A DNA stretch of 33,733 bases. It comes from Lachnoclostridium sp. (GTDB lineage Bacteria; Bacteroidota; Bacteroidia; Bacteroidales; Muribaculaceae). The notes beneath the pieces are model-generated. The model was not told the DNA's origin. It saw only the letters and a program-made list of their open reading frames with translations, and ran no database searches. The stretch covers positions 1 to 33,733 of the forward strand of contig JAMPAP010000012.1 in NCBI GenBank assembly GCA_023667185.1, read 5' to 3'. Both the position numbers and the translations under genes were made by a program. Positions 8,420 through 33,648 of this stretch are shown here, piece by piece. Position 1 is the stretch's first letter. Each line of letters opens with the position of its first letter.

Positions 8420-9628
8420 ATGAAAAAGTATTTTCTGCTATCATTGGTGGCAATGAGTATATCTTCAGCCGCTTTTGCTGATGAGCCCATTGACACTGTG
8501 ATTCCTGTAGACTCTACAGGCTTCGTATTCACTGACATAAAGTTAGTTCCCACCAACTCTGTAAAGGATCAGAACCGCTCGGGTACATGCTGGTGCTTTG
8601 CCGGAACATCCTTCCTTGAAGATGAGATCCTGCGCAAGACAGGCAAGTCAATTGACCTCAGCGAAATGTTTACCGTGCGCCACTGCTACGATGACAAGGC
8701 CGTGAAATATATGCGTATGCAGGGCAACACCAACTTTGCTGCCGGCGGCTCAATCGTGGACGTTCCCAACGTGTTCCGCACTTACGGTGCTGTGCCTGAG
8801 GAGGTTTATACCGGACTTCAATACGGCGAGGAAAAGCATAACCACGGCGAACTTAACGCTGCTTTAAGCGCCTATCTCAAAGCAGTCTACAACAACAAAG
8901 GCAAACACCTCTCGACTGCCTGGAAGAAGGGCGTCGACGGAATTCTTGACGCTTATCTCGGCGAACTGCCGGAGACCTTTGAATACGAAGGCAAGACCTA
9001 CACTCCGCAGACGTTTGCTGCATCGCTTGGCCTGAATATGGACGATTATATTGCCCTCACCTCCTTCACTCATCATCCTTACTACAAGCCGTTTATCCTT
9101 GAAGTTTGCGACAACTGGACAAATGATGGCTACATGAATCTTCCTCTTGACGAGTTTAAAGCCGTAGTGGACAATGCGCTTGAAAATGGCTACTCCGTAG
9201 AGTGGGCGGCTGACGTCAGCGAGGGCGGCTTCAAGTGGAAAGAGGGGTATGCTCTTATGCCCAAAAAGAAAACTGAGGCCGACATGGAAGGCACCGAACT
9301 TTCACGCTGGGTGAAACTCTCTGATCGCGAGCGCGAAGAGGCTCAGTTTGACTTCAATAGCCCGGTTGAGGAGATCACCGTTACGCCCGAGAGCCGTCAG
9401 GAGATGTTTGACCGTCTTGAGACCACTGACGACCATGGCATGGTCATCATCGGCAAGGCTATTGATCAGGAAGGCAACAAATATTACAAGGTGAAAAACT
9501 CCTGGGACACTAACCAGATCTACGATGGTTACTTCTATGTATCAGAGCCTTACTTCCTTGCTAAGACTCTCAGCATCCTTGTTAACAAAGAAGCTATCCC
9601 CTCCTCCATCTCCAAGAAAATCAAGTAA
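8420..9628 (+). CDS. Exported C1-family cysteine aminopeptidase (bleomycin hydrolase/PepC-like)
   Basis: This papain-fold peptidase belongs to the C1B group. The catalytic cysteine is C57 in NRSGTCWCFAG, the histidine H339 in DDHGMVIIG, and the asparagine N360 in KVKNSWDT, all in family order. Classic PepC and bleomycin hydrolase are cytosolic hexamers. This protein instead starts with a clear signal peptide (MKKYFLLSLVAMSISSAAFA before DEP) and is therefore expected in the periplasm, as in many Bacteroidales homologues. A role in trimming peptides from the N-terminus is inferred from the family. It lies between rnr and an ATP-grasp-like gene that starts 7 nt after its stop. No terminator separates it from either neighbour. 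Confidence 0.9.
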   Translation: MKKYFLLSLVAMSISSAAFADEPIDTVIPVDSTGFVFTDIKLVPTNSVKDQNRSGTCWCFAGTSFLEDEILRKTGKSIDLSEMFTVRHCYDDKAVKYMRMQGNTNFAAGGSIVDVPNVFRTYGAVPEEVYTGLQYGEEKHNHGELNAALSAYLKAVYNNKGKHLSTAWKKGVDGILDAYLGELPETFEYEGKTYTPQTFAASLGLNMDDYIALTSFTHHPYYKPFILEVCDNWTNDGYMNLPLDEFKAVVDNALENGYSVEWAADVSEGGFKWKEGYALMPKKKTEADMEGTELSRWVKLSDREREEAQFDFNSPVEEITVTPESRQEMFDRLETTDDHGMVIIGKAIDQEGNKYYKVKNSWDTNQIYDGYFYVSEPYFLAKTLSILVNKEAIPSSISKKIK

Positions 9629-9635
9629 TCACATC

Positions 9636-10694
9636 TTGAAATTACATCTGTTCAATCCCGAAAACGATCTCGCTCTCGGGATTGATTGCATAAACTATAC
9701 GCCACCGCCCAATGCAGCAGCGCTGCATCGGGCCGGTGCGCTTTTTCCTCTTTGGTGGGCCGGAGAGGGTGATGCTGTAATCACTCCTAAAGGCTACGAA
9801 GAGGATAAGATATGGATGCGCTCAAGGTTCGGTCTTTCAGCTGATACATCTATAATTCCCGACGCCATTCCATCCCCCTGGGGATGGAGCAAAGATGCAC
9901 GCCGCCAGTTTCTGATGGCCGACAAGAATCTTGAGCTTTTGCCTTCTGATCAAGAGCTGGCTGACTTCCGCCGTCTGAGCAGTCGAGCCTCTTCAATCGA
10001 TATCCTCTCCCGCGCTGGTTATCAGGGGGTATTACCCATAAATGCAACTAATGTAGAGGATGCTCTAAGCTTCATTTCCACCTATGGCCGTTGCTATGTA
10101 AAAAGTCCCTGGTCAGGTAGCGGGCGCGGCGTTTTCTCTACTGCCGAGCTCCCGGGCGGAGCGTTGCGGCGTCGCATCGAAGGGATCATTCACCGTCAGG
10201 GCTCAGTAATTGTGGAGAAGGAGTTGGATAAGGTGATGGATTTTGCACTTCTGCTCTACAGGACTGGAAATGAAATAAGTATCGCCGGGCTGTCAGTTTT
10301 TCTTACCGAGCCGCGCGGCATGTACTGCGGCAACCTTGTCGCCCCTCAACATTTGCTGCGTGAAATAGTCTGCTCCAAGGCCTCAGAACAGGAGCTCGAC
10401 TATTGGACTGCGCGTATCACCCAAGCCGTCTATGAATTGATGGCCGGAGAAAGCTATCAGGGGCCAATCGGCATAGATATGCTCGTACACAGCGCAGGTA
10501 TCATGCCTTGCATAGAGATGAACATGCGCATGACCATGGGCTTCGCTGCTATGGCAGTGGCTGATCGTCTCGGAGTCACCTCACCTCACGTCATGGCATG
10601 GAATCATGGCGACATGAGCAAAGATTCTCTCCTGCTCCTGCCGCCACGTGAAGGGTTTGCTTTGACGCTCAATAAATTATTAAGTGACGATTAA
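9636..10694 (+). CDS. ATP-grasp-like protein of unknown substrate, TTG start
   Basis: The recognisable protein begins KLHLFNPENDLALG, so I place the start at the in-frame TTG 7 nt after the peptidase stop, giving 352 residues. Longer frames from upstream would run through the peptidase gene and add a low-complexity Ser/Lys/Pro stretch. ATP-grasp features are YVKSPWSGSGRGVFS (K156 plus glycine-rich loop), the VIVEKEL strand that usually reaches the adenine, GIDMLV, and the metal-binding CIEMNMRMTMG near the C-terminus. This points to a carboxylate-amine or peptide ligase, but the substrate is unknown and the fold assignment is by motif only. The last three residues (SDD) and the stop codon come from the inverted repeat of the adjacent MITE-like element, so the original C-terminus has probably been altered. 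Confidence 0.7.
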   Translation: MKLHLFNPENDLALGIDCINYTPPPNAAALHRAGALFPLWWAGEGDAVITPKGYEEDKIWMRSRFGLSADTSIIPDAIPSPWGWSKDARRQFLMADKNLELLPSDQELADFRRLSSRASSIDILSRAGYQGVLPINATNVEDALSFISTYGRCYVKSPWSGSGRGVFSTAELPGGALRRRIEGIIHRQGSVIVEKELDKVMDFALLLYRTGNEISIAGLSVFLTEPRGMYCGNLVAPQHLLREIVCSKASEQELDYWTARITQAVYELMAGESYQGPIGIDMLVHSAGIMPCIEMNMRMTMGFAAMAVADRLGVTSPHVMAWNHGDMSKDSLLLLPPREGFALTLNKLLSDD

Positions 10695-10842
10695 AAATAA
10701 TATGGTAAACTTTTCTATGTTATTTATGAATCTTCACTTTTTCCAAACAATCATTTAGCTCGCTAAAATCATGCTTGTTCAAAAGCAAATCTTCAAAAAT
10801 AACATTACGAAAAGTTTACCATATTATTTTTTAATCGTCACT
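10682..10842. mobile_element. MITE-like element copy 1 (161 bp, terminal inverted repeats)
   Basis: The ends are near-perfect inverted repeats: AAGTGACGATTAAAAA, then TAATATGGTAAACTTTTC, runs inward from both sides with a single one-base length difference. A weaker extension (TATGTTATTTATGAA against TAATGTTATTTTTGAA) brings each arm to about 50 nt. The centre is a 60-70 nt unique segment. It is much more AT-rich than the flanking genes. The left end supplies the codons for SDD plus TAA of the ATP-grasp gene; the right end supplies the final Lys and TGA of the OmpA-like gene. A second, shorter copy at 25597-25698 shares both arm types. No flanking target duplication is obvious. As RNA it would fold into a long hairpin and could end transcription from both converging genes. 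Confidence 0.75.
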
Positions 10843-11680
10843 TGGTGTCTTCTGACTCGGGCGCCTTGTCGATAAGGTCGAGGAACTGATCAAGCTTGGG
10901 AGTAATGATAATCTCCGTACGACGGTTACGCTGACGGCCGGCATCGGTTGAATTATCGGCTATGGTGTTATACTCGCCACGACCACCGGCAGTAAGTCTT
11001 GACGGATTGATACCGAAATCATTCTGCAGACATTGGACTACACTTGAGGCACGCAGAGCCGAGAGGTCCCAATTGTTGCGGATGTTCTGACGGGTGATAG
11101 GCACATTATCAGTGTTGCCCTCCACGAGTACGTCGTAATCGCTATAATCCTTGATGATCTTTGCTATCTTGCTGAGGGTTTCCATGGCCTTCGGACTAAT
11201 GTCATAGCTACCCGATTTGAAGAGCATATCATCTGACAGCGAGATATATACTACACCCTTGATAACCTTGACATTAACATCCTTCATCTCATCAGTGCTC
11301 AGCGAGCGGGTGAGATTAGTGGTCAGGGCAAGGTTAAGCGAATCAGATTTTGACTTGGCATCCACAAGCTGCTTGATATACTTGTTGGAGGCGTTAATCT
11401 CGTCCACGAGCTTTGAGATGTTGGTATTGCCCTGCATATTAGCGCTGAGGCTCTGATCAAGAGTCTGTTTCAGAGCAGCCATACCGTTTCGTAGCTCCTC
11501 ATTCTGTTTTTTGGTTGCATCGAGCTGGCTCTGGAGGTTGCGTGACTCGGCATTACATTCGATCAGGCTCTCCTTGGTGGAAGAATACTGATCCTGCATC
11601 AGATTGTACTTCTTGTGGCTTACGCATCCGCCGAATATCAGGCTGACTACCGCCACTGTAATTACAGATTTAAGTTTCAT
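10838..11680 (-). CDS. OmpA-family peptidoglycan-binding lipoprotein
   Basis: The start at MKLKSV is preferred over an ATG two codons upstream because it gives a normal lipoprotein signal ending FGG-Cys19. A coiled-coil-like region (about 25-115) spans LIECNAESRNLQSQLDATKK and the following heptads. The C-terminal OmpA domain (about 140-270) shows FKSGSYDISPKAMETL, VEGNTDNVP, NNWDLSALRA and GRGEYN, followed by the GRQRNRRTEI block that contacts diaminopimelate in OmpA/Pal folds. It probably links the outer membrane to peptidoglycan. It is the last gene of a minus-strand run after tamL and the HAD phosphatase. The stop codon lies in the inverted repeat of the neighbouring element, so its extreme C-terminus may have been reset by that insertion. 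Confidence 0.88.
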   Translation of the reverse strand: MKLKSVITVAVVSLIFGGCVSHKKYNLMQDQYSSTKESLIECNAESRNLQSQLDATKKQNEELRNGMAALKQTLDQSLSANMQGNTNISKLVDEINASNKYIKQLVDAKSKSDSLNLALTTNLTRSLSTDEMKDVNVKVIKGVVYISLSDDMLFKSGSYDISPKAMETLSKIAKIIKDYSDYDVLVEGNTDNVPITRQNIRNNWDLSALRASSVVQCLQNDFGINPSRLTAGGRGEYNTIADNSTDAGRQRNRRTEIIITPKLDQFLDLIDKAPESEDTK

Positions 11681-11739
11681 TTCCACAATAGTTTTGAGGT
11701 TATATACGTATATATAACAAACTATCGGGGAGAATGGTT

Positions 11740-14856: not shown

Positions 14857-14940
14857 CTAAAATCTAAAATCTAAAATCTAAAATCTAAAAACTAAAATCT
14901 AAAAACTAAAAACTAAAAACTAAAAACTAAAAACCAAAAT
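14857..14940. repeat. Tandem 7-bp repeat, 12 units
   Basis: Twelve uninterrupted 7-bp units read on the plus strand: CTAAAAT four times, CTAAAAA, CTAAAAT, CTAAAAA five times, and finally CCAAAAT. The tract fills most of the space between the divergent tamL promoter and the promoter of the thioredoxin-like/tamB unit, ending about where the -33 region of the latter should be. Such arrays change copy number by slippage. There is no spacer structure, so it is not a CRISPR array. Confidence 0.95.
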
Positions 14941-14966
14941 CTATTTCCCGGATGACTTTTTTTCTT

Positions 14967-25596: not shown

Positions 25597-25698
25597 AAGT
25601 GATGATTAAAAATATGTTGGTAATATTTTCGTAATGTTATTTGTTTAGATTTATAAATAACATAGAAAAATTCAGAAGTTATTTTTTAATCGTCACTT
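25597..25698. mobile_element. MITE-like element copy 2 (102 bp), inverted relative to copy 1
   Basis: The left end is AAGTGATGATTAAAAA and the right end, read on the other strand, is AAGTGACGATTAAAAA. Just inside, the left arm has TTTTCGTAATGTTATTT, identical to the right arm of copy 1. The right arm has TTTTCTATGTTATTTAT, identical to the left arm of copy 1. The two copies are therefore the same element in opposite orientation, and this one lacks the 60-70 nt centre. The right end overlaps the TAA of the Rpn-type remnant. The left end lies 100 nt upstream of dacB. Confidence 0.75.
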
Positions 25699-26161
25699 AC
25701 AGTTTTTCGATATCCGAAATGCTCAAGCCGGTGCATATCGAAATTGTCGAAGTATCCACACCACTCTCCTTCATCTTCTTTGCCACCTCAAACATTGCCT
25801 CTTCGCGGCCTTCTTCGCGGGCATCTTCACGGGCGTAAGAAATGTTGTTTTTATAGTCTCTATAAGCTTTCAAACTACGGTCATAATCCATATGCTTTTC
25901 TCTACTGAGACTTGCATACGCAGCTTCCGATTCAAGCACCTTGAATGTATCATCCTCATTTGAAAATGCCATGTAATCCATATCTTCCATATTTATCAGG
26001 TTAAACAACCATTTCTCCATTTTTGTTTCACACTCCTGCTCTGTCCGCTTCTTGAATAGTGGCAACTGCAGGAATATATACCGCATTTTCGTGGTCAACG
26101 GCTCATGGGTATCTAAATCAAGGAGCATTCCGGTTAAAAAGGTCTTTTCGCAAAGACACAA
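25697..26161 (-). pseudogene. 5'-truncated Rpn-family (PD-(D/E)XK) recombination-promoting nuclease
   Basis: The readable frame holds 154 codons, but only the C-terminal half of the family is present. From about LDLDTHEPLTTKMRYIFLQLPLFKKR it follows the usual Rpn/PDDEXK_2 order, through MEKWLFNLINMEDMD and the YDRSLKAYRDYKN helix to the Arg/Glu-rich stretch (AREDAREEGREEAMFEVAKKM) and the end STISICTGLSISDIEKL. The nuclease core that normally lies in the first 150-180 residues is missing. The first dozen residues (MCLCEKTFLTGM) do not resemble the family, so the break is near 26125. It is probably inactive. The C-terminus looks natural, and its TAA is shared with the end of MITE-like copy 2. 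The parE promoter begins 22 nt beyond its upstream end. Confidence 0.75.
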
Positions 26162-32577: not shown

Positions 32578-33648
32578 TTATTTTGGATATGTTTTCTCAG
32601 GATTATAGTCCTGTTCATTTTTCATAATGGATAGTATTATATTGGATAATCGACGTGCCACCTTAACAATGGCATTGGTGGATTTCATTCGTTGGCAGCA
32701 TTTGTGGTGATACGCATTGAATGCGGCATCTTTGGCAATCGCTCGCCATGAGGCCTCAATCATCATAGAGCCAATCATTCGGTTGCCCCTAAATATCTTC
32801 TCACCGTGCGAGACGTTGGGCCCACTATCATGACACATGGGGACAAGTCCAAGCGCACAGGCAAAACTTCGTTCATTGGGAAAGCGATTGAAGTCACCGA
32901 TTTCCGTTAGCAACACCACCGCAAAATTTATACCTATGCCAGGAACAGTCATCAATCGTCGAAGTGGCTCTGCATACTTTTCAGATTTTATCATTTTCTT
33001 CACGGCACGACCGGCAGCAAGGACCTCCTTATGAAGCACCACAAGATGATCAACGAGCATCAGCAATGAATTGCGAGTTGTTCCCATCAATTGCGCATCC
33101 TGGCGCAACCACGATAAGAACGTAAGACTCCAATGTCTGGAAAATTGCTCCGGGATAGTAACTCCATTGGTATAAAGCAAATGCTTGATTCTGACTTTTG
33201 TGGCTGCTTCCTCGTTTTTAAAGGTCTTGCGGATACGTACTAACGACCTGTCGTCCAAGTCCTCAATAGCTCGTATGCTTATTCCTTGCAATTCTCCGGC
33301 ACGCAGCGACTCCGCTAACTTCTTGGAATCACGTCGGTCGGTCTTCAGAAGTTGTTCTTTCTGAGTCGTTGGCACATCTGCAGCATTAGCTATGATAGTA
33401 TGGATTCCCACCGCTGTAAGAGCATAGTAAGTTGAAAAACCGGTAAAACCGCTTTCATATACAGCGTGATATTCGCCCTCGGGAAACTCTCGAGTTAGAA
33501 AAGTTATCAACGCATCTGCCGATGGCGGCTGATTGAAGCTTTTGCAATAACCCTTATGGGTTACACAGGTGACATCCCAACTATTACTGTGGACATCAAT
33601 TCCGATAAAAATTTTTTGTCGTCTGCCGACTTTTTTGTTACTTCGCAT
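32578..33648 (-). CDS. IS110-family (DEDD) transposase/recombinase
   Basis: This 356-residue recombinase has both family domains. The N-terminal RuvC-like DEDD domain shows D18 (FIGIDVHSNSWDV), E65 (HAVYESGFTG), and D104 with D107 (KTDRRDSKKLAESL). A central helical region (about 130-225) precedes the C-terminal Tnp domain: MTVPGIGINFAVVLLTEIGDFNRFPNERSFACALGLVP, then the probable catalytic serine S280 in GPNVSHGEKIFRGNRMIGSMMIEASW. No frameshift or internal stop is seen, so it may be active. IS110-family enzymes act as RNA-guided dinucleotide-core recombinases that excise and reinsert the element through a circular intermediate. About 85 bp lie between its start and the window end. Confidence 0.93.
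   Translation of the reverse strand: MRSNKKVGRRQKIFIGIDVHSNSWDVTCVTHKGYCKSFNQPPSADALITFLTREFPEGEYHAVYESGFTGFSTYYALTAVGIHTIIANAADVPTTQKEQLLKTDRRDSKKLAESLRAGELQGISIRAIEDLDDRSLVRIRKTFKNEEAATKVRIKHLLYTNGVTIPEQFSRHWSLTFLSWLRQDAQLMGTTRNSLLMLVDHLVVLHKEVLAAGRAVKKMIKSEKYAEPLRRLMTVPGIGINFAVVLLTEIGDFNRFPNERSFACALGLVPMCHDSGPNVSHGEKIFRGNRMIGSMMIEASWRAIAKDAAFNAYHHKCCQRMKSTNAIVKVARRLSNIILSIMKNEQDYNPEKTYPK

What the first reader, a model, noticed from the sequence alone, without database searches (positions are those of the whole stretch)
10682..10842. MITE-like inverted-repeat element that writes the stop codons of two converging genes
The element's outer sequence (T)AAGTGACGATTAA contains stops in several frames. 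On the left it ends the ATP-grasp gene (AGT GAC GAT TAA). On the right it ends the OmpA-like gene (AAG TGA). An insertion between converging genes that replaces both C-terminal ends would spread with little damage while acting as a bidirectional terminator hairpin. The sequence and the stop codons are seen directly; mobility is inferred from the second copy.
Basis: partly seen in the sequence, partly recalled or inferred. Interest (0 to 1): 0.7.

Follow-up and report, generated by a model that had tools for sequence, protein, structure and literature searches.

The report
Mobile hairpin family near stop codons
A 158-bp hairpin between two genes belongs to a small mobile-DNA family with dozens of copies in this gut bacterium; copies sit in or beside stop codons more often than chance and their ends stop translation in every frame, which probably keeps them harmless, but it is a new example of a known kind of element.

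Summary
The element is window 10684-10841, flanked by TAA and TTG, and supplies the stop codons of both converging genes. It is not local: the draft genome has 18 full-length copies and 33 two-ended elements of 18-239 bp by my settings, with consensus end GTGACGATTAAAAAATAAC. Insertion makes a 3-bp target duplication, mostly TAA or TTA: 14 of 18 full-length and 21 of 33 elements match, against 27% between unrelated elements. Relatives show empty sites. Hence a MITE family, probably moved in trans by a transposase that I did not identify. In 5 of 33 the flanking 3-mer is a neighbour's TAA stop (2.5% expected), and the end has stops in three frames.

The two proteins are not shortened compared with relatives. 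The window copy lacks matching flanks and its neighbours are apart in relatives, so it may mark a rearrangement. No intrinsic terminator was found. Fifteen exact single ends and the missing transposase remain unexplained. Verdict: new member of a known kind.

The parts
10684..10841 (.). MITE, type 1, 158 bp, a near-complete fold-back (imperfect inverted repeat over its whole length)
   Evidence: 18 full-length copies in own genome, this one included
10681..10683 (.). left flanking 3-mer TAA (target-duplication position)
   Evidence: partner is TTG, so no matching duplication at this copy
10842..10844 (.). right flanking 3-mer TTG (target-duplication position)
10684..10715 (+). left terminal inverted repeat, GTGACGATTAAAAATAATATGGTAAACTTTTC; stops TGA (+4) and TAA (+11) reading inward; TAA at +11 ends the ATP-grasp ORF
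10809..10841 (-). right terminal inverted repeat; TGA at +4 reading inward ends the OmpA-like ORF
10754..10767 (.). centre of the fold-back, TTTAGCTCGCTAAA; the core TAGCTCGCTA recurs in most copies of element types 1, 2 and 3
   Evidence: alignment A1; pairs counted
9525..10694 (+). ATP-grasp-like ORF whose last codons and stop (AGT GAC GAT TAA) are in the element (family name from the finding and by eye, no family search)
10838..11686 (-). OmpA-like ORF whose stop TGA is in the element (family name from the finding and by eye, no family search)
25599..25696 (.). second, shorter member (98 bp) with similar ends, flanks TAA and TTA (not matching)
25697..26161 (-). C-terminal part of a PDDEXK_2 (PF12784) gene whose stop TAA is the right flanking 3-mer of the 25599-25696 element

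Best explanation
[quoted passage not shown] The members have no gene. They share an end of consensus GTGACGATTAAAAAATAAC that is proposed to be bound and cut in trans by a DDE-type transposase that I did not identify. Insertion is mostly at 3-bp TWA sites (TAA/TTA), which are duplicated. A copy that lands in a TAA stop codon rebuilds it, and a copy that lands just before a stop gives the gene a new one within 0 to 18 nt, because the consensus end carries TGA (+4), TAA (+11) and TAA (+18) in three different frames. Positions at gene ends would therefore be among those left after selection. Recombination or deletion between copies would explain joints such as the window copy. Shown here: the copies, the ends, the 3-bp duplications, empty sites, and the stop codons. 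Inferred: the transposase and its class, selection as the cause of the bias, and the rearrangement.
For: 18 full-length copies at 88-100% identity plus shorter members in own genome. Exact end motif: 56 sites in G000 and 20 in four of the other 26 same-genus genomes, none in the remaining 22 (the reversed control gave one site, in G016). Identical 3-mers on both sides in 21 of 33 own elements and 14 of 18 full-length ones, including TAG/TAG, ATT/ATT and TTT/TTT. Over 51 candidates from all loci, 28 match over 3 bases and 1 over 4; cross-element rate 26.6%; binomial 9e-6 for 21 of 33. Empty sites: uppP-truB in 7 of 7 relatives where it was found (8 searched), with the insertion exactly at the uppP TAA stop; mgtE-ksgA in 7 of 8, the eighth not alignable; no paired ends in any of these loci. 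Whole-length pairing kept by paired changes: 52 cells changed on both sides against 11.5 shuffled and at most 20 when slid. Stops from the element or its flank in 12 of 33 elements. In 5 of 33 the flanking 3-mer is the TAA stop itself, against 2.5% of non-coding TWA sites (P 0.001); with matching flanks required it is 4 of 33 (P 0.009).
Against: No element with a transposase and these ends was found in a draft, 93%-complete genome. At the 15 single ends I read the first ORF inside by eye in 14, without a family search, and no search for DDE transposase families was made. The window copy has no matching duplication, nor do 11 other two-ended elements. Fifteen exact ends are single; one of them (C11:770990) has a fair partner 1362 bp away, the others no convincing one within 3 kb. 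TWA preference alone makes a quarter of 3-mers match.
Confidence: 0.86

Rival explanations
1. REP-like palindromic repeats (GTAG or CGTC super-families) spread by a single-strand tyrosine transposase; the solo 54-56 bp palindromes would be the units and the 160-bp form an inverted dimer.
For: The left 57 bp of the 160-bp element is itself a rough palindrome and occurs alone. CGTC occurs in the ends. CGTC REPs are reported in Bacteroidetes and said to lack a dedicated transposase (PMC3733652, passages).
Against: A 3-bp target duplication is seen, which that chemistry is not expected to give (recalled). CGTC here is inside the stem at both ends, not an unpaired tag at one end; most units are far longer than 20-40 bp.
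Confidence: 0.06
2. The PDDEXK_2 (PF12784) gene is the transposase and the MITEs are deletion derivatives of a PDDEXK_2 element.
For: 3 of 6 PDDEXK_2 genes in the genome lie directly beside a member or a diverged member, one being the window copy at 25599. In two copies (C11:91627 onward and a deleted one on C36) the shared repeat begins exactly at the element end and runs to the stop codon.
Against: G002, G003 and G022 (99, 99 and 93% complete) have the elements but no PDDEXK_2 match; five genomes with PDDEXK_2 lack the elements. Right ends differ between copies. Rpn proteins, a related family by recall, are described as a toxin-antitoxin and anti-phage system (PMC10327210, abstract beginning in listing).
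Confidence: 0.1
3. The end motif is a functional site (for example a regulator or DNA-uptake site) kept by selection, and the paired forms are only the palindromic version.
For: 15 exact single ends, 12 of them with TAA or TTA outside, several just after terminator T-runs or between close genes; 18-19 bp palindromes.
Against: Absent from 22 of 27 same-genus genomes. 160-bp interiors are duplicated with it at about 90% identity. 3-bp duplications.
Confidence: 0.05
4. Fixed local bidirectional terminator at this locus only.
For: Strong hairpin between converging genes.
Against: Many copies elsewhere; no terminator-like site; no relative shows the two genes as neighbours.
Confidence: 0.02

Closest known systems
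Bacterial MITEs such as MITEAba12 (Acinetobacter) and QMITE2 (Coxiella)
   Same: Short, no transposase gene, terminal inverted repeats; MITEAba12 has stops in all six frames and can add up to 19 residues to a gene (PMC6382973, passages); a QMITE2 copy adds the last 33 residues of a protein, with the stop just downstream of it (PMC5896051, passages)
   Different: 3-bp duplication, mostly TWA, instead of 9 bp in MITEAba12; fold-back over the full length; no resident parent element found; the end sequence was not compared with theirs
IS1031 subgroup of the IS5 family
   Same: Prefers TNA and makes an exclusive 3-bp direct repeat (PMC12016507, passage)
   Different: No transposase gene linked here; the one end sequence seen (GAACCTGTCTAGTATCT, ISLrh) is unlike GTGACGATTA
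Eukaryotic Tourist MITEs / PIF-Harbinger
   Same: 3-bp duplication (PMC2213677, abstract beginning in listing); TWA target and kinship to IS5 are recalled
   Different: Eukaryotic hosts; no shared sequence shown
Porphyromonas gingivalis MITEs (BrickBuilt, MITE464, MITE239)
   Same: Bacteroidales MITEs whose ends match IS5-family elements (PMC4596501, passages)
   Different: Different ends; BrickBuilt duplications vary in length there

Membership tests
MITE | Short and without a transposase gene | tested here: met
   18-239 bp members; six-frame reading of two of them shows no long ORF
MITE | Terminal inverted repeats | tested here: met
   23 nt perfect within a longer imperfect repeat in the window copy; alignment A1
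MITE | Target-site duplication | tested here: met
   21 of 33 and 14 of 18, 3 bp long; not met at the window copy itself
MITE | Multiple dispersed copies and empty sites | tested here: met
   empty sites shown at two loci
MITE | A resident autonomous element with the same ends | tested here: inconclusive
   None seen at the exact end sites by reading ORFs; draft assembly, no transposase family search
IS5 / IS1031 derivative | TNA target, 3-bp duplication | tested here: met
   18 of 21 matching pairs fit TNA (TAA 10, TTA 8); TAG, ATT and TTT do not
IS5 / IS1031 derivative | IS5-type DDE transposase for these ends | not tested
REP (GTAG/CGTC) | 20-40 bp unit with an unpaired tetranucleotide tag at one end | tested here: not met
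   CGTC lies inside the paired stem at both ends
PDDEXK_2 element | Elements occur only with the gene | tested here: not met
   G002, G003, G022 have elements without the gene
Intrinsic terminator | G+C-rich stem followed by a T run | tested here: not met
   0 found in 10300-11300; shuffles 0.8 on average

The most novel reading that the evidence does not exclude
A mobile family adapted to stop codons: a TWA-preferring transposition that rebuilds the stop codon it hits, with ends that close all three reading frames within 18 nt, so that any stretch between two such ends, down to the bare 18-19 bp palindrome, can be a mobile unit; the solitary ends would be traces of its use in reshaping gene junctions.
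Probability: 0.12. Interest if true: 0.65.

Novelty: new member of a known kind. Interest (0 to 1): 0.4.

Why it matters
It gives a clear case in which target choice (TAA/TTA) and the sequence of the ends together may explain how a small element can reach high copy number in a compact genome without breaking genes. It also gives a marker family (dozens of copies here, absent from 22 of 27 same-genus genomes searched) for following rearrangements, and leaves a concrete question: which transposase moves it. No title or abstract beginning in my paper listings names this family; those searches cover open-licence papers only and were few.

Tried and rejected
Rejected: fixed local terminator. REP/CGTC membership. 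PDDEXK_2 as the proven mover: attractive from linkage and from the repeat boundary, but the elements occur without it in three genomes of 93-99% completeness. The DUF4143 ATPase gene on C26, enclosed by two facing ends with TAA on both sides, was considered as an autonomous element. I do not claim it: a facing pair 1362 bp apart also encloses a gene that looks like a housekeeping formyltransferase (name by my reading), so two ends can enclose a gene by coincidence. In 500-bp flanks of the 8 other DUF4143 genes no pair with these ends was found. A peptide-like frame inside the 160-bp element was looked at and dropped. Rfam: three matches far below the gathering score, to microRNA hairpin families; none in six loci. 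No match in plasmids or phages or viral contigs. Of the 10 stretches with the exact 19-mer in genome contigs, 8 are in Muribaculaceae-, Bacteroides- or Amulumruptor-labelled records and 2 (L176, L181) are single ends in Bacillota or Clostridium records, which I take as chance.

Solo ends: deletion between A/T runs, decay of the hairpin and rearrangement were all considered. The secY-map single-mismatch site is likely chance: the relatives have TAATCGA (5) or TAACCGA (2) at that place in 7 of 7. For rho-nadC the two genes are not neighbours in the relatives looked at (8 rho, 7 nadC loci), and for two other single ends (beside an aldolase-like and an rpsA-like gene, names by my reading) the next genes are not found beside the orthologue in 8 and 7 loci, but gene order is poorly kept in general, so this proves nothing.

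Full report
What is there. The element reported at 10682-10842 is real. Read directly, the ATP-grasp-like ORF runs into it and stops at TAA (10692-10694), and the OmpA-like ORF runs into it from the other side and stops at TGA (10838-10840 on the minus strand). The 160 nt form one hairpin (-56.3 kcal/mol, z -14.2, none of 200 shuffles as good). A second, shorter member lies at 25599-25696.

It is a dispersed family. The draft genome (2.29 Mb, 43 contigs, 93% complete) holds 18 full-length copies including this one, at 88-100% identity, and many shorter matches. The end motif AGTGACGATTAAA occurs at 56 exact sites (control 0) and 107 with up to one mismatch (control 2; the last few of the 107 were not listed). 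All 56 exact sites lie in stretches I fetched: 37 are in two-ended elements; 2 are cut by contig starts; 2 face each other around a DUF4143 gene on C26; 15 are single. I count 33 two-ended elements, of 18-19, 42-56, 98, 156-162, 224 and 239 bp. They were defined by two ends with at most three mismatches in total and these length classes, so the number depends on those settings.

Boundaries and target duplication. Comparing flanks shows that the element starts at GTGACG and ends at CGTCAC, with three bases repeated outside. In own-genome elements 21 of 33, and 14 of 18 full-length ones, have identical 3-mers: TAA 10, TTA 8, TAG 1, ATT 1, TTT 1. Over 51 candidates from all loci, a few of which are doubtful pairs that I kept in, 28 match over 3 bases and 1 over 4; 3-mers from different elements match in 26.6%. 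Binomial tail for 21 of 33 at that rate: 9e-6. Twelve of the 33 do not match, the two window copies (TAA/TTG and TAA/TTA) among them.

Empty sites. Between uppP and truB (names by my reading) the 55-bp member sits exactly at the uppP TAA stop codon; in 7 of the 8 relatives searched the two genes were found together, with 9 to 59 unaligned bases between the matches and no element. Between mgtE and ksgA, 7 of 8 relatives could be aligned and lack the 161-bp member; in the eighth (G002) the two genes are about 2 kb apart. None of these loci holds a pair of ends. Relatives are about 70-80% identical in DNA, so intergenic bases cannot be aligned one by one.

Spread. With the element as query, 5 of 41 genomes match (own included), all in the genus; none of 16 from other families. 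The exact end motif is in 5 of 27 same-genus genomes: 56, 6, 5, 1 and 8 sites; the reversed control gave one site in all. In the named collection the exact 19-mer is in 10 stretches, 8 of them from Muribaculaceae-, Bacteroides- or Amulumruptor-labelled metagenome assemblies. No match in plasmids, phages or viral contigs.

Structure. An alignment of 28 copies (own genome and relatives; three sequence types with different interiors) was counted against the window's hairpin. 91.6% of cells pair; 19 of 65 pairs have changes on both sides and 52 cells are such, against 11.5 shuffled (0 of 500 reach it) and at most 20 when slid. Much of this is the difference between type 1 and the five sequences of types 2 and 3, so the events are fewer than the cells. 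A consensus fold on the same alignment keeps only 35 pairs, 11 with changes on both sides. The ends change together too: GTGACG becomes GGAACG or GTAATC with a mostly matching change at the other end. The hairpin is therefore kept, either because the two ends must match for transposition or because the fold matters.

Stop codons. On at least one side, 12 of 33 elements hold a neighbour's stop codon in the element or in the flanking 3-mer; on both sides 2 of 33, the window copy and a 19-bp palindrome at C11:737681. The positions seen are 0, +1, +4, +11 and +18 from the end. In the consensus end, TGA at +4, TAA at +11 and TAA at +18 lie in three different frames, a property that 3.3% of shuffles of the 19-mer share, so it need not be an adaptation; copies with fewer A lose the +18 stop. 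In 5 of 33 the flanking 3-mer is itself the TAA stop codon (4 of these with matching flanks); among TAA/TTA sites outside coding parts of the same stretches 2.5% are stop codons (90 of 3559). P = 0.001 for 5 and 0.009 for 4. ORFs here are simple ATG ORFs of at least 90 codons, not curated genes.

The window copy. Relatives' OmpA proteins end within a few residues of ours (10 of 12 loci readable to the end; L116 and L118 gave broken ends), and ATP-grasp proteins likewise (19 loci looked at, of 24 relatives with a match). So nothing much was cut off. In the 11 relatives where both genes were found, they are on one contig in 4 (at least 0.58 Mb apart) and on different contigs in 7 (coordinates). 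With the unmatched flanks this suggests that the copy joins two formerly separate places, for instance by recombination between two copies. A single insertion with a later changed flank is not excluded, and gene order is poorly kept among these relatives in general.

What moves it. No transposase with these ends was found. At the single ends I read the first ORF inside by eye (14 of 15), without a family search. A PDDEXK_2 gene is linked to members in 3 of 6 cases, and one repeat boundary coincides with the element end, but three genomes of 93-99% completeness have elements without it. The 3-bp TNA duplication matches the IS1031 subgroup of IS5 (PMC12016507, one passage); 18 of 21 matching pairs fit TNA. 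I did not search for DDE transposases by family, so the class is inference.

What stays open. Fifteen exact ends are single, and 12 of 15 have TAA or TTA outside. Several follow a terminator-like T-run directly or fill a short gap between genes. One has a fair partner 1362 bp away. Deletion between the A/T tracts of the element and of its neighbourhood would give such forms, but I could not test it.

Verdict. A new MITE family, a new member of a known kind, with an instructive match between target site, end sequence and stop codons. MITEs that add the last residues of proteins are already in print (PMC6382973, PMC5896051; passages).

Noticed in passing
L108 (G000 C26) 235-1511: An AAA_14/DUF4143 ATPase gene enclosed by two facing element ends with TAA on both sides (1277 bp); a possible passenger, or coincidence of two single ends. 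A perfect 18-bp inverted repeat lies just upstream of its start.
   Followed up: partly
window 25697-26161 (-); L143, L087, L142: PDDEXK_2 (PF12784) genes and a deleted gene remnant sit next to members or diverged members of the family; on L143 and L087 the shared repeat starts exactly at the element end.
   Followed up: partly
G000 C11:166902-166919, C11:737681-737699, C11:973161-973178: 18-19 bp palindromes made of the two ends with nothing between; two of three are flanked by matching TAA.
   Followed up: partly
L041 4751-4974, L039 4519-4757, L100 2266 onward: Longer members or half-members with another shared interior; the first two include the palindrome-like CCCCACGTAAACGTGGGG.
   Followed up: no
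ends of G000 C12, C30, C32 (L205, L105, L085): Three contigs end in the same 53-bp hairpin-like sequence, next to a single element end in two of them; probably a collapsed repeat of the assembly.
   Followed up: partly
L140 (C11:438584-439039 region): Another DUF4143 gene has a similar repeat of about 60-70 bp on both sides (AAAAGTTTACGGGTATA...), unrelated to this family.
   Followed up: no
window 14857-14947: Tandem 7-bp repeat CTAAAAT/CTAAAAA between two genes.
   Followed up: no
window 32578-33648 (-): IS110-family transposase gene (PF01548, PF02371) close to the contig end.
   Followed up: no
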